Below, piece after piece: positions 2,541 through 34,784 of a stretch of 34,784 nucleotides of DNA. This DNA is from Syntrophomonadaceae bacterium (GTDB taxonomy: Bacteria; Bacillota; Ch66; Ch109). The DNA lies in contig JAAYQE010000004.1 of NCBI GenBank assembly GCA_012519455.1, forward strand, positions 1 to 34,784, in the 5' to 3' direction. Position numbers and translations under genes: made by a program. The notes under the pieces are model-generated. The model did no database searches, was not told the DNA's origin, and saw nothing but the letters and a program-made list of their open reading frames with translations. Every line of letters starts with the position of its first letter. Position 1 is the stretch's first letter.

Positions 2541-3017
2541 CTACATGGCCCGTATTTTATTGCCTCGGTTATCCCCCTGGGTTAAACTTTTATAGGTCTC
2601 GAACATTTCAATTACTTCCAATCGGGTTCTTTCTAAATTCCCGTTACGGGCGGCTTCATAAATATGGTTTAGTCCCAAAAAAACCCCTTCTAAAACTCCG
2701 TCAAACACCTCGAAATTTTCTAAAAGCGGAGCGTATTTGTCGTAAAAATGTTCATATACCCCTAGGCAAATATTTTTGATTCTACGTACTCGTTCCATAG
2801 ATTCAGCACAATAAGAATCCGTTGACTCGGACAGTAGATACAAACTCTGTAAGTTATTAAAAAACCAAGGATTATTTATCAACTGAGAATAAAGTTCATA
2901 TCGACACTGCTGAACTACCAAATAACTCAGATAAGATTGTAGTTGCCGCCGGCTATCTGGGGGCAAGATCGCATACTGGTTAAGTATTTGGATCTCGGAT
3001 AAACTTAAACTATTCAT
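2541..3017 (-). CDS. Small helical protein of unknown function
   Basis: I do not recognise this 158-residue protein. It appears largely alpha-helical, with no signal peptide, membrane segment or metal motif. It has many aromatic residues (for example NNPWFFNNLQ) and two cysteines. It starts with ATG after a clear AGGAGG and lies directly upstream of the beta-CASP nuclease gene on the same strand, so a role linked to that enzyme is possible but unproven. A SigH-like promoter motif and a terminator-like hairpin lie upstream. Confidence 0.7.
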   Translation of the reverse strand: MNSLSLSEIQILNQYAILPPDSRRQLQSYLSYLVVQQCRYELYSQLINNPWFFNNLQSLYLLSESTDSYCAESMERVRRIKNICLGVYEHFYDKYAPLLENFEVFDGVLEGVFLGLNHIYEAARNGNLERTRLEVIEMFETYKSLTQGDNRGNKIRAM

Positions 3018-3142: not shown

Positions 3143-3172
3143 TATTTCGACGCTGGAAAACACAAATCCTGC
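3143..3172 (-). promoter_or_regulatory. SigH-like promoter motif upstream of the 158-aa gene
   Basis: On the minus strand GCAGGATTT is followed after exactly 12 bases by GTCGAAATA. The published Spo0H/SigH consensus is RnAGGAwWW, 11-12 bases, RnnGAATww; the -10 half here has one mismatch (GAAA for GAAT). Two similar sites occur elsewhere in this window. The terminator hairpin lies immediately downstream. Confidence 0.4.
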
Positions 3173-5112: not shown

Positions 5113-5376
5113 CAAATAAAAAAGCCTCTCTCCTTTATAAAGGGACGAGAGACTATCTCGCGGTACCACCCTAATTGGCATAGGCCCACCTCAATCATCC
5201 CGGATAACGGAGGGACCGGGCGGACCTACTTGGTTAATCCCAGGCAACCTTTCGACCGCCAGCTTCCGGGGGGCTTTCCCTGTTCCCTCTGATCGGTCTT
5301 CCACCGTCACCGACTCTCTAAACAGAGGTTGCATACAGTTTTTTCCCGGTCATTGCTTAAACCTTTTAATTTTTCT
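5113..5376 (-). ncRNA. T-box leader upstream of lrp-aminotransferase operon
   Basis: The minus strand contains the hallmark T-box sequence AGGGTGGTACCGCG (5159-5172). Upstream is a long Stem I with closing helix GACCG/CGGTC, a CCTCTG/CAGAGG helix and a distal AGAGAGTCGGTGACGG-type arm. Downstream is the competing terminator. T-box RNAs bind a specific uncharged tRNA and read its anticodon with a specifier codon. Two candidate positions on the 3' side of Stem I read GCC and GCT, both alanine codons; I cannot fix the register by eye. The UGGU of the antiterminator bulge would suit a tRNA with A at position 73. The downstream gene is the Lrp/AsnC regulator, about 115 bases past the terminator. 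Confidence 0.9.
5118..5153 (-). terminator. T-box conditional terminator
   Basis: The minus strand reads CTCTC..CCTTT, a short loop, AAAGGAGAGAG and then GCTTTTTT. This is the terminator alternative of the T-box; formation of the AGGGTGG antiterminator would prevent it. Confidence 0.85.
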
Positions 5377-24682: not shown

Positions 24683-25780
24683 TTACCTGTCAACCTCACC
24701 CAGAACTGGATCCAGGGAGGCTAAAATAGAAATGACATCTTGAATTTTCCATCCCTTTATCAGTTCTGGAAATACCCCCATATTTACAAAAGAGGGGCCT
24801 CGAATATGCAAGCGATAAGGTTTATTCGATCCGTCGCTAACTAGGAAAAAACCTAGCGCGCCCTTTGATGACTCCACTTGATGATAAACCTCTCCGGGGG
24901 GAATTTTAATCATTCTCGGTACCTTGCCCTTAATCTCACCCTCGGGCAGGTTCTCCAAAGCTTGTTCGATGATCAGACGGCTTTCTTCCATTTCATCAAA
25001 ACGAATCATATACCGATCAAAACAATCACCTTTATAGCGCACGGGAACTTCAAAGGTAAAACGTTCATAAATACTATAAGGCTGGGCACGCCGTACATCA
25101 TAGGAAACCCCGCTGGCCCTAAGATTAGGTCCAGTGATACCGTAAGCCATGGCCATGTCCGGGGGTAATATCCCAATAGATTTGGTGCGCGCTAAAAAAA
25201 TTTCATTACCGGATAATAAATCATGAATCTCATGCATCATCGCGGGAAATTGTTGAATGAATTCACGGCAAGCGGGTATAAACTCCGCCGGTAGGTCTTC
25301 CGAGACGCCACCAATACGCATATAGCTAACGCTCATCCTTGACCCGCAGGTCATCTCAAACAGATCCAGTATCTTTTCCCTTTCTCTTAAGGCATACATC
25401 CATCCCGTTGAACTGGCTAGGTCAATGGCCATGGTGGCAACCATTAACAGATGGGACGCCATGCGAGACAATTCAGCCATAATAACGCGCAAATATTCAG
25501 CCCGCTCCGGGACCTGTAAGCCCATTATTTTCTCAATCGTTTCTACATAGCCTTGATTATAGACCATAGGACAAAGATAATCGATGCGATCCGTATAAGG
25601 AATAAACTGGGGATACGTTTTCGCTTCCGCAATTTTTTCCATCCCCCGATGAAGATAGCCTATATGATTCTCCGCCTGGGTTACGGTTTCTCCATCAAGC
25701 GTTAAAAGGCAACGAAATACGCCATGTGTACTGGGGTGCTGGGGACCCATGTTCAAATGCAATTCCTGTGTTCTAGGCAT
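24683..25780 (-). CDS. nuoD: NADH-quinone oxidoreductase subunit D
   Basis: A 365-residue 49-kDa-type subunit. The quinone-site histidine lies in [16 protein letters not shown], and the C-terminus ends in the conserved [20 protein letters not shown]. It lacks the nickel ligands of group 4 hydrogenases, supporting a quinone-reducing complex I rather than a hydrogenase. Start follows a strong AGGAGG. Confidence 0.95.
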
Positions 25781-27395: not shown

Positions 27396-27483
27396 TGGTG
27401 CGGCAGAAGGGACTTGAACCCCCACGACCCCACGAGCCACTAGACCCTGAATCTAGCGCGTCTGCCAATTCCGCCACTGCCGC
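27396..27483 (-). tRNA. tRNA-Leu (anticodon CAG)
   Basis: The minus strand folds into a tRNA with acceptor GCGGCAG/CTGCCGC, D-arm, a long variable arm typical of class II tRNAs, and T-loop GGTTCAAGTCC. The anticodon loop TTCAGGG gives CAG, reading CUG leucine codons. The 3' CCA is encoded (GCACCA). Confidence 0.95.
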
Positions 27484-28377: not shown

Positions 28378-29568
28378 CTACATTTCTACTGCCAGAGCTG
28401 TACCCATGCCACCACCAATGCAGAGAGTGGCCAGACCTTTCTTCGCTCCTCTACGCTTCATTTCATAAAGCAGGGTAACTAAAATACGAGCACCAGAGGC
28501 GCCAATCGGGTGACCGATAGCAGTTGCGCCACCGTTTACGTTGACCTTACTGAGGTCAAAACCGAGGTCTTTACCTACAGCAATCCATTGAGCTATAAAT
28601 GCTTCGTTGGCTTCAATCAGATCAAAGTCTTCAACCTTTAGGCCGGTTTTCGCACATAATTTCCGTACTGCCGGAATGGGGCCAGTACCCATAACCTTAG
28701 GATCAACACCACCGGAGGCCCAACCAACAAACTTAGCCATCGGGGTCAGTCCTAATTCTTTTGCTTTTTCTTCGGACATAACCACGATTGCGGCGGCTCC
28801 GTCATTAATCCCGGAGGCATTACCCGCAGTCACTATTCCGCCATCTTGGAAAGCAGGTCTTAGTTTACCTAGCGCTTCTTTGGTTGCCCCAAAACGAACA
28901 AATTCGTCGGTATCAAATACCGTGGTACCTTTTCTGGTCTTGATTTCTACCGGAACGATTTCATCCTTAAATTTACCTGCTTTGATCGCTGCTTCCGCTT
29001 TATTCTGACTGAGAGCTGCTTGCTCATCTAATTCTTCCCGAGTAAGACCATACTCTGCAGCTACGTTCTCTGCAGTATTACCCATATGGATGGAGTTGTA
29101 AACATCCCAGATTCCATCATAAATCATCATATCTTTTACTTTGCCAAAGCCACTTTTTGGGCTGGCCATCCGGTAGCCCCAGCGGGCTTCATCCAGAACA
29201 AAGGGAGCATCGGACATGTTTTCAGTACCGCCGGCTACGATGATATCCGCATCGCCGTTTTGAACGAATTGAGCCGCAATAGAAACGGCCCGTAGACCGG
29301 AGCCACAAACCTTGTTTATGGTCAAAGCAGGAACTTCAACCGGTAAGCCAGCACCCAAAGAACACTGACGAGCAATATTCTGGCCTAAACCACCCTGGAG
29401 AACACAACCAAATACTACTTCCTCTACTTTCGCCGGATCCAGATTAATCCTGTTCAAAGCTTCCTTAATAACTAAGGACCCAATCGAAGCTGCGCCCTGG
29501 CCTTTGAGGCTTCCCCCAAAGCTACCGACCGGAGTACGCACTGCACTGACGATTACAGCATTTCTCAT
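28378..29568 (-). CDS. atoB: Acetyl-CoA C-acetyltransferase (thiolase)
   Basis: A 396-residue thiolase with the nucleophilic cysteine in [17 protein letters not shown] (near 88), the histidine segment [18 protein letters not shown] near 350, and the second active-site cysteine in [13 protein letters not shown]. It condenses or cleaves acetoacetyl-CoA in the cytoplasm. Full length suggests a biosynthetic or short-chain type rather than a SCP-like form. Start follows GGAGG. With the etf/EMO genes nearby, a role in butyrate or fatty-acid beta-oxidation is plausible. The leader is about 190 bases from a SigH-like promoter motif. Confidence 0.95.
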
Positions 29569-29647
29569 TTCTTATTAACCTCCATCTTTTATAATTTTTT
29601 TGGTTTTGGTACAACTTCTACCCTAAAACGTTTACCCCTCCACCAAT

Positions 29648-29668
29648 GAGGTGTATTCCCTTCACCTC
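29648..29668 (-). promoter_or_regulatory. Hairpin with an orphan Shine-Dalgarno in the thiolase leader
   Basis: GAGGTG/CACCTC form a six-pair stem that includes a perfect AAGGAGGTG, 80 bases upstream of the thiolase start and without a matching start codon at usual distance. The rest of the 370-base gap (29569-29939) holds the SigH-like motif and the hairpin at 29858. Confidence 0.3.
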
Positions 29669-29763
29669 CTTCAATACATAATAAAGACTGAGCCTTCCGA
29701 TTGCAGGATCTGCACAATCTCGCTCGTATGTTTGCCTGAACTGCTTGTTTTTGCTTTAGCTCT

Positions 29764-29793
29764 TTATTCTACAAAGATCTCCAAAATTCCTGC
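29764..29793 (-). promoter_or_regulatory. SigH-like promoter upstream of the thiolase gene
   Basis: GCAGGAATT, 12 bases, GTAGAATAA on the minus strand matches the SigH consensus RnAGGAwWW-(11-12)-RnnGAATww without a mismatch. No terminator lies between it and the thiolase gene. Confidence 0.55.
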
Positions 29794-33283: not shown

Positions 33284-34030
33284 TTAGCCGACGACCCGAG
33301 CTTCGTTCTTCAGCCAGTTAACGAGTTGAGCAGCTACATCCGCTGCTTCGCCTTCGATTTTCTTACCCGCAGCTTTTGGAGGCGGAATGAATAACGATTC
33401 AACGGTAGTTTTATTCGCCAAAGCTTCTCCAGCTACCTTGTCTACCGGTTTCTTTTTCGCTTGCATAATACCCTTCATGGAAGGATAACGAGGTTCATTC
33501 ATTCCGACCTGGCAAGTAATAACCGCTGGAAGCTTAACCTCGATAATTTCGGTACCGCCATCGGTTTCACGGGTACAGGTAGCAACGCCACCATTCAATT
33601 CTAATTTACGTACTACGTTAACATGGGGAAGGTTCAGGATTTCGGCCATCCGAGTAGGAACTTGAGAAGAACCATCGTCTGCCGCTACGTGACCGCAAAG
33701 AATCAGGTCTGCGCCTAAACCGCCAACTGCCTTGGCTAAAATGCCTGCCCGAGCATATTCATCGGCATCTGCATCAGCACTAACTACAACACCCTTATCC
33801 GCACCCATCGCTAGTGCTTGTCGAAGCGTATCCTGCGTTTTTTCAGGACCTGCGGTTACTACAATTACTTCTCCGCCCTGCTTTTCTTTTATTTGCAGAG
33901 CTTCCTCCACGGCTACTTCATCGTAAGGGTTTAGAATTAGGTTAATACCATCTTCACTAACTTTGCCGTCTTTAAGAGTAATCTTAGCCTCTGTATCAAA
34001 GGTTTGCTTAGCTAATACAGCTATTTTCAA
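33284..34030 (-). CDS. etfB: Electron transfer flavoprotein subunit beta
   Basis: A 248-residue EtfB with VVTAGPEKTQDTLRQALAMGADKGVVV, LILCGHVAADDGSSQVPTRMAEIL and the TDGGTEIIEVKLPAVITCQVGMNEPRYPSMKGIMQAKKKP recognition-loop region. The ORF track starts at 34063, but AAAGGAGG lies inside that extension eight bases before a TTG at 34030, giving LKIAVLAKQTFDTEAKI, the usual EtfB N-terminus. It is the first gene of the etfBA-EMO group and has an exceptionally long structured upstream region. Confidence 0.93.
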   Translation of the reverse strand: MKIAVLAKQTFDTEAKITLKDGKVSEDGINLILNPYDEVAVEEALQIKEKQGGEVIVVTAGPEKTQDTLRQALAMGADKGVVVSADADADEYARAGILAKAVGGLGADLILCGHVAADDGSSQVPTRMAEILNLPHVNVVRKLELNGGVATCTRETDGGTEIIEVKLPAVITCQVGMNEPRYPSMKGIMQAKKKPVDKVAGEALANKTTVESLFIPPPKAAGKKIEGEAADVAAQLVNWLKNEARVVG

Positions 34031-34201
34031 AGCTCTTTCCTCCTTTGAGAATGGTTTTTTCACTAAAATAATCTTTGTACTACTTACCTATTGATTTTAA
34101 CCAACTCTGTCTCTACTTAGAAAAACGAACCTTCTTTCACCACCCCCAACCGAGTTTTATGTGTGATTCGTGGCCCCCTCAGTCTATCTCTGACGGTATT
34201 T

Positions 34202-34272
34202 TCCACTTTCTAACTCAGTTTCTGTAAAACTAAAGCAAATAAGATTAATCCTCTTACTGGTTAGAAAGTGGA
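34202..34272. repeat. 13-bp perfect inverted repeat upstream of etfB
   Basis: TCCACTTTCTAAC (34202-34214) and GTTAGAAAGTGGA (34260-34272) flank a 45-base loop. The core CACTTTCTA also recurs in the loop of the hairpin at 34453. It lies within the etfB leader. Confidence 0.75.
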
Positions 34273-34280
34273 TTGTGATG

Positions 34281-34394
34281 CCCTCATTATTGTAGACGCA
34301 TATGGAATGCGTCTTTGAGGGGTCCACCCATAGCCGATTCACCTTTCGGCTAGAAAGACTAATTGTCCCCAGGTAAATAGATTCCTGATGGACC
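34281..34394 (-). ncRNA. Candidate three-way-junction RNA element in the etfB leader
   Basis: GGTCCA/TGGACC (34321-34326, 34389-34394) encloses two hairpins: TAGCCGA/TCGGCTA with an eight-base loop, and CAGG/CCTG with a ten-base loop. Immediately next to it, CCCTCA/TGAGGG encloses AGACGCAT/ATGCGTCT with a five-base loop. This resembles a riboswitch-like three-way junction plus an expression-platform hairpin. I do not recognise the class; no T run follows. Confidence 0.4.
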
Positions 34395-34452
34395 CTGCTT
34401 TAATGTGCCCAGAAAAATCCAGGCCAAAAAATTACTTAAATTCAGTTTAGCC

Positions 34453-34481
34453 AATTAGTCGCACTTTCTATCCGACTAATT
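34453..34481. repeat. 9-bp inverted repeat AATTAGTCG in the etfB leader
   Basis: AATTAGTCG and CGACTAATT are separated by 11 bases (CACTTTCTATC). The AATTAGTC sequence also occurs in the junction of the neighbouring three-way element, so the two stretches could pair alternatively. Confidence 0.65.
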
Positions 34482-34526
34482 CATTCCCGGGCTCTATCTC
34501 CTAATTTCCCATTTGATTACTCATAA

Positions 34527-34548
34527 AAAAAGCCCGGCCCTAGAGCAT
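34527..34548 (-). terminator. Weak terminator after cheR
   Basis: On the minus strand GCTC and GGGC pair around TAGGGCC and are followed by seven T residues, about 80 bases past the cheR stop. A longer-range alternative pairs CCGGGCT with AGCCCGG 40 bases away. Confidence 0.4.
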
Positions 34549-34573
34549 TTCATAACAAAGTTTTCTTTTCTCC

Positions 34574-34603
34574 TAGTTCTACATAAAGCAAACAAATTCC
34601 TGC
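34574..34603 (-). promoter_or_regulatory. SigH-like promoter motif upstream of the etfB leader
   Basis: GCAGGAATT, 12 bases, GTAGAACTA on the minus strand. The -35 half is identical to that upstream of the thiolase gene; the -10 half has one mismatch (GAAC for GAAT). A weak terminator follows within about 30 bases, so it may drive a short RNA or an attenuated etf transcript. Confidence 0.4.
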
Positions 34604-34628
34604 CTGAGGCTAAAAATTTTCATCTATT

Positions 34629-34784
34629 TTAAGTCTTTTGATAAAAAAAAGTCGCAATAGAGGTCAAACCTAATTCTCGTGCCTGAAAAATTTGTTCGGT
34701 ACTACCGATGAATAATACTCCGCCCTTGCGTAAAGCCTGGTGAAAACGCTGATACAAACGGGTTTTAGCTTCCTCGGTAAAATA
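34629..34784 (-). CDS. cheR: CheR-type chemotaxis methyltransferase (partial, runs off right edge)
   Basis: Translation of the minus strand from the window edge gives [18 protein letters not shown], then [21 protein letters not shown] and a terminal [10 protein letters not shown] before TAA. This is the C-terminal end of the SAM-dependent CheR domain, which methylates glutamates of chemoreceptors. Most of the gene is outside the window, so its start and any N-terminal or fused domains are unknown. Confidence 0.88.

What the first reader, a model, noticed from the sequence alone, without database searches (positions are those of the whole stretch)
34030..34603. Unexplained 560-base structured leader of etfB
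The gap between cheR and etfB contains a 13-bp perfect inverted repeat, a three-way-junction-like fold, an eight-pair hairpin enclosed by CCCTCA/TGAGGG, and a 9-bp hairpin. The short words CACTTTCTA and AATTAGTC recur among them, allowing alternative pairings. Such density of structure suggests a riboswitch, large regulatory RNA or RNA-protein target controlling electron-transfer flavoprotein expression.
Basis: partly seen in the sequence, partly recalled or inferred. Interest (0 to 1): 0.65.

Follow-up and report, generated by a model that had tools for sequence, protein, structure and literature searches.

The report
Structured leader with start-less ribosome site
The 600-base gap before the electron-transfer gene etfB in this relative of syntrophic fatty-acid-oxidising bacteria looks like a real messenger-RNA leader: it begins with a conserved alternative-sigma promoter, carries a block of hairpins shared with one sister genus, and holds a ribosome-binding sequence without a start codon that is conserved in all 52 related leaders examined and may protect this normally very abundant message.

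Summary
The cheR-etfB gap (34031-34628, minus strand) folds better than shuffles (z -3.8 to -5.3), and its 13-bp perfect inverted repeat was matched by 0 of 300 shuffles. No Rfam family matches. The host belongs to a small class near Syntrophomonas; the operon etfB-etfA-FeS oxidoreductase is the counterpart of S. wolfei Swol_0696-0698.

Comparing 52 etfB leaders separates three layers. (1) A SigH-type promoter (34577-34603), in 52/52. (2) An extended Shine-Dalgarno (SD) sequence, GGRGGUGRU (here GGGGGUGGU, 34139-34147), 71-124 nt upstream of etfB in 52/52, with no conserved start codon; it varies almost only where the ribosomal anti-SD has a U. (3) The hairpin array, found only here and in a sister genus: a three-hairpin block (34323-34428) keeps 19/19 pairs, five of them changed (alifold z -5.2).

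Best reading: a long SigH-driven 5' UTR with a conserved start-less SD, resembling the STAB-SD mRNA stabiliser of Bacillus thuringiensis cry3A (5' ends -558 and -129), plus a lineage-specific structured domain of unknown role. A ligand riboswitch is unsupported but not excluded. The likely mechanism is a variant of a known one. No expression data were available.

The parts
34577..34603 (-). SigH-type promoter GCAGGAATTTGTTTGCTTTATGTAGAA
   Evidence: Same element in 52 of 52 related etfB leaders; SigH gene in the genome; 27 genomic sites versus 2 for the reversed control; fits AGGA-(17-18)-GAAT of PMC12456013 except the last base
34525..34546 (-). Terminator-like GCTC-loop-GGGC followed by T7, about 30 nt after the promoter
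   Evidence: GGGCTTTTTTT shared by three genera at the same place, but the stem is only 4 bp, -3.6 kcal/mol here, and the terminator scan does not call it
34453..34482 (-). 9-bp hairpin AATTAGTCG/CGACTAATT, window-specific
   Evidence: Present; this segment is missing in the sister genus
34323..34428 (-). Conserved three-hairpin block (GGCCUGG.., GUCC..GGAC, CUAGCCG..CGGCUAU)
   Evidence: 19 pairs kept in L040:208-312, 5 changed, 0 broken; alifold z -5.2, 0 of 500 column shuffles; model R1 finds only these two among 52 leaders
34281..34321 (-). Eight-pair hairpin enclosed by CCCTCA/TGAGGG
   Evidence: Present; no alignable counterpart in L040
34202..34272 (-). 13-bp perfect stem with 45-nt loop
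   Evidence: 0 of 300 shuffles; a long stem sits in a similar place in L040
34139..34147 (-). Orphan (start-less) extended Shine-Dalgarno GGGGGUGGU
   Evidence: GGRGGTGR in 52 of 52 leaders, 71-124 nt upstream of etfB, A/G changes only at positions 3 and 8; no conserved start or frame
34045..34055 (-). ACCAUUCUCAA, can pair with UUGGGGGUGGU (34139-34149) next to the etfB SD
   Evidence: -14.4 kcal/mol, 0 of 200 shuffles; no co-evolution outside the host family
34035..34046 (-). etfB Shine-Dalgarno AAAGGAGGAAAG
   Evidence: conserved in relatives
33284..34030 (-). etfB, start TTG 34028-34030
   Evidence: Pfam ETF 1.8e-43
34629..34784 (-). 3' end of cheR (cut by window end)
   Evidence: Pfam CheR 1.8e-08; cheR-etfB neighbourhood in most relatives

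Best explanation
The gap is a long 5' untranslated leader transcribed from a SigH-type promoter at its far end. Its conserved core is a start-less extended Shine-Dalgarno sequence about 110 nt upstream of etfB. Most likely a 30S subunit binds there through the 16S anti-SD and blocks 5'-to-3' exonuclease, giving a stable etfB-etfA-oxidoreductase message, as STAB-SD does for cry3A. The roughly 400 nt upstream of it is a lineage-specific structured region in which one three-hairpin block is kept in two genera and may be a processing site or a protein target. Shown: conservation of promoter and orphan SD, absence of a conserved start codon, structure-preserving changes in the block. Inferred: transcription, 30S binding, stabilisation, and any role of the hairpins.
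For: Promoter in 52/52 leaders and SigH gene present. Orphan SD in 52/52; G positions invariant, A/G only where the anti-SD has U (anti-SD sequence from general knowledge). No conserved reading frame after it. Second operon in the window, thiolase, has the same plan and keeps it in the sister genus. Precedent with similar geometry: cry3A 5' ends at -558 and -129, STAB-SD close to -129, 30S blocks RNase J1 (PMC4113751). Counterpart proteins in S. wolfei are among its most abundant (PMC4324140). Three-hairpin block z -5.2 with 5 of 19 pairs changed and kept.
Against: No RNA data. The host's 16S 3' end is not in the assembly, so the anti-SD is assumed. RNase J was not looked for in this genome. 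In the window the orphan SD can be buried in an 11-bp helix, which would oppose 30S binding. GGGGG is a weaker core than the usual AGGAGG. A DNA-binding protein could also keep the motif. Only one of the five changed pairs in the block changed on both sides.
Confidence: 0.5

Rival explanations
1. Metabolite- or protein-sensing switch: the hairpin array and the terminator-like U7 element form an attenuator or riboswitch that controls etfB.
For: Strong excess folding; three-hairpin block with compatible changes; GGGC-U7 conserved in three genera; alternative pairings exist.
Against: No Rfam match; block in only 2 of 52 leaders; weak terminator stem; the long stem and outer hairpin are not alignable in the sister genus.
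Confidence: 0.15
2. The hairpin-rich upstream part is neutral lineage-specific expansion or a decayed element without function; only promoter and ribosome sites matter.
For: Inferred leaders are 551 nt here, 491, 312 and 364 nt in the three classmates and 165-245 nt in the eleven other relatives folded, most of which show no excess folding; part of the structure is missing in the sister genus.
Against: Five changed but kept pairs of 19 and none broken; 63% identity over the block (67 of 106 columns) while its flanks have diverged.
Confidence: 0.2
3. GGRGGTGRT is a DNA operator or a site for a regulatory protein or small RNA rather than a ribosome site.
For: Very high conservation, and in Syntrophomonadaceae a fixed neighbourhood GGCGGTAAANTTGCCGTAGGCAA plus AT-rich stretch just upstream, whose hairpins show no covariation.
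Against: Substitution pattern is the one expected for pairing with the anti-SD; that upstream neighbourhood is absent from the window although the motif remains.
Confidence: 0.15

Closest known systems
STAB-SD 5' mRNA stabiliser of Bacillus thuringiensis cry3A (PMC4113751)
   Same: Long leader, SD-like sequence about 110-130 nt before the gene that does not start translation, highly expressed product
   Different: Extended GGRGGUGRU instead of the cry3A sequence; SigH-type promoter; preceded by a structured domain; stabilisation not tested
SigH promoters driving energy metabolism in anaerobes (Sporomusa sphaeroides, PMC12456013)
   Same: AGGA and GAA elements 18 nt apart before central catabolic genes
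   Different: Here before etf and thiolase operons of syntrophic-type bacteria; last base of GAAT is C; start site not mapped
Leader riboswitches and attenuators of Firmicutes (for example the T-box at 5138-5362 of this window)
   Same: Structured 5' leader with a terminator-like element
   Different: No family match; structured block limited to two genera; terminator stem weak

Membership tests
STAB-SD | SD-like sequence in the 5' UTR complementary to the 16S 3' end | tested here: met
   GGRGGTGR in 52 of 52 leaders; complementarity is to the standard anti-SD, the host's own 16S end is missing from the assembly
[quoted passage not shown]
   No conserved start codon or reading frame; translation itself not measured
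STAB-SD | Lies at the processed 5' end of the message | not testable with these tools
   No transcript ends available
STAB-SD | Binding of 30S blocks RNase J1 and stabilises the mRNA | not testable with these tools
   Needs half-life and toeprint experiments
SigH (Spo0H) promoter | AGGA and GAAT elements with 17-18 nt spacer | tested here: met
   AGGA-18-GAAC at 34577-34603, last base differs
SigH (Spo0H) promoter | SigH in the genome | tested here: met
   TIGR02859 379.7 bits, cut-off 294.8
Known RNA families (riboswitches, large structured RNAs) | Match to an Rfam covariance model at gathering score | tested here: not met
   None in the leader
Intrinsic terminator / attenuator | Stable G+C-rich stem followed by a U-run | tested here: inconclusive
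   U7 after a 4-bp stem, -3.6, -4.3 and -7.3 kcal/mol in short folds of three genera; not called by the scan

The most novel reading that the evidence does not exclude
The leader is a two-state RNA: a 30S subunit parked on a start-less SD both protects the message and frees the adjacent etfB ribosome site, and an upstream hairpin domain tunes this in response to a cellular signal, linking the key electron-transfer operon of fatty-acid oxidation to ribosome availability.
Probability: 0.1. Interest if true: 0.75.

Novelty: new variant of a known kind. Interest (0 to 1): 0.5.

Why it matters
In Syntrophomonas wolfei the counterpart EtfAB2 and membrane oxidoreductase are thought to carry electrons out of beta-oxidation and are among the most abundant proteins. 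A start-less SD kept in 52 of 52 leaders, behind a shared SigH-type promoter, would make the control of this operon directly testable, and would show a STAB-SD-like device as an order-wide selected feature.

Tried and rejected
Known RNA family: Rfam at two thresholds, nothing; S. wolfei leader, nothing. Repeated or mobile element: single copy in the genome, no match in plasmids or phages. Leader peptide behind the orphan SD: no conserved start or frame; no matching frames in the hairpin block. Sigma-54 promoter from TGGC..TTGC in Syntrophomonadaceae: spacing varies and GG is often GA (read). Co-evolving helix between orphan SD and etfB SD flank: swap test negative outside the family. Covarying hairpins in the Syntrophomonadaceae element: sequence conserved, no double changes (the structure string was misplaced by me). 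Covariance-model hit in G050 (E 9.6e-4): inside what reads as a glutamine synthetase gene, taken as chance. Anti-SD check in the class genomes: 16S ends not found.

Full report
What is there. The gap between cheR (stop 34629-34631, minus strand) and etfB (TTG start 34028-34030) is 598 nt. The ORF list gives a GTG start at 34063, but the conserved AAAGGAGG followed by TTG marks the likely real start. They exceed chance: folding z -3.84 on the minus strand, -5.26 from the inferred transcript start, and a 13-bp perfect inverted repeat that none of 300 dinucleotide shuffles matched. The opposite strand folds equally unusually, so the strand must come from other evidence.

Context. The operon is etfB, etfA and an FeS oxidoreductase with CCG, Fer4 and nitrate-reductase-gamma domains, followed by a thiolase. 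This is the arrangement of S. wolfei Swol_0696-0698, whose products were highly abundant under all growth conditions tested (PMC4324140). The host's class holds only four genomes in the searchable set. Named relatives are Syntrophomonadaceae MAGs, Syntrophothermus, Thermosyntropha and Syntrophomonas, and cheR precedes etfB in most of them.

Promoter. All 52 related leaders carry AGGA-like and GAA elements in one 25-27 nt unit. In the window this is 34577-34603. It fits the SigH motif AGGA-(17-18)-GAAT (PMC12456013) except for the final base. The genome encodes SigH, and the pattern occurs 27 times against 2 for the reversed control. Sites outside long frames lie before etfB, the thiolase, and a gene that reads as GAPDH, among others. 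By inference the transcribed strand is minus.

Start-less Shine-Dalgarno. All 52 leaders hold GGRGGTGR 71-124 nt upstream of etfB. Positions 1, 2, 4, 5, 6 and 7 are invariant; position 3 is G/A (43/9), position 8 G/A (28/24), position 9 is T in 51. Opposite the standard 16S tail (general knowledge: GAUCACCUCC) the two variable positions face U, so both letters pair. The chance of such an 8-mer in a given 55-nt stretch is below 1% per leader (55/8192, simple estimate), but the leaders are related, so counts are not independent. No start codon at usable spacing and no reading frame is conserved. The thiolase operon in the same window has the same plan: SigH-type promoter 29767-29793, AAGGAGGTGAAGG about 100 nt before its ATG, then its own SD; the sister genus keeps both, while more distant thiolase genes do not. 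The closest precedent is STAB-SD of cry3A: 5' ends at -558 and -129, with an SD-like sequence near -129 that binds 30S and stops RNase J1 without starting translation (PMC4113751).

Structured part. Only the window and its sister genus L040 have strong excess folding (z -5.3 and -3.3); the two other class members give -1.9 and -1.1; of eleven further relatives most are near 0, with one at -2.7. Between the two, a 106-nt block (34323-34428; L040:208-312) keeps three hairpins: 19 pairs hold in both, 5 differ (U-G/C-G, G-C/G-U, U-G/U-A, C-G/U-G, U-A/C-G), none is broken; alifold z -5.2 and 0 of 500 column shuffles as low. Only one of these five is a change on both sides, and two sequences cannot give a formal covariation test. 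A covariance model finds only these two among the 52 leader loci (a weak L063 hit, E 0.25, lies 2 kb from its etfB) and no other credible one in 101 genomes. The 13-bp stem and the CCCTCA/TGAGGG hairpin have no alignable counterpart, although a long stem sits in a similar place in L040. The segment holding the 9-bp hairpin is missing in L040. A GGGC-T7 element after the promoter is shared by three genera but has a weak stem.

A possible switch. In the window the orphan SD can pair over 11 bp with ACCAUUCUCAA beside the etfB SD (-14.4 kcal/mol, 0 of 200 shuffles as low); L040 and L041 can form it as well. But in the wider set matched arms are no better than swapped arms, so this is at most a family feature.

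Judgement. The leader is real and structured, and part of it is conserved. The riboswitch reading is not supported. The best-supported function is message stabilisation or ribosome loading at a conserved start-less SD behind a SigH-type promoter; the hairpin domain is an extra layer of unknown role. No step involving RNA abundance, binding or stability has been shown here.

Noticed in passing
29568-29793 (minus): Thiolase leader with the same plan as etfB: SigH-type promoter 29767-29793 and orphan SD GGAGGTGA about 100 nt before the ATG, both kept in the sister genus; here GAGGUG could pair with a nearby CACCUC.
   Followed up: partly
3146-3172 (minus): A third SigH-type site in the window, outside long frames, before the 158-aa ORF 2541-3017.
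   Followed up: no
L087:3862-3925 and 40 similar loci (alignment A2): Syntrophomonadaceae etfB leaders share an undescribed element GGCGGUAAANUUGCCGUAGGCAA, an AU-rich stretch and UCAUGGGGGUGAUGG; conserved in sequence, two mutually exclusive hairpins possible, no covariation, no Rfam match.
   Followed up: partly
cheR-etfB junction across Syntrophomonadales: A chemotaxis methyltransferase gene directly precedes the etf operon in most genomes examined, an unexplained conserved neighbourhood.
   Followed up: no
5138-5362 (minus): T-box leader, Rfam 103.5 bits.
   Followed up: no
27396-27483 (minus): tRNA-Leu (CAG).
   Followed up: no
24683-25780 (minus): Complex I 49-kDa subunit family protein, in a run of minus-strand genes.
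   Followed up: no
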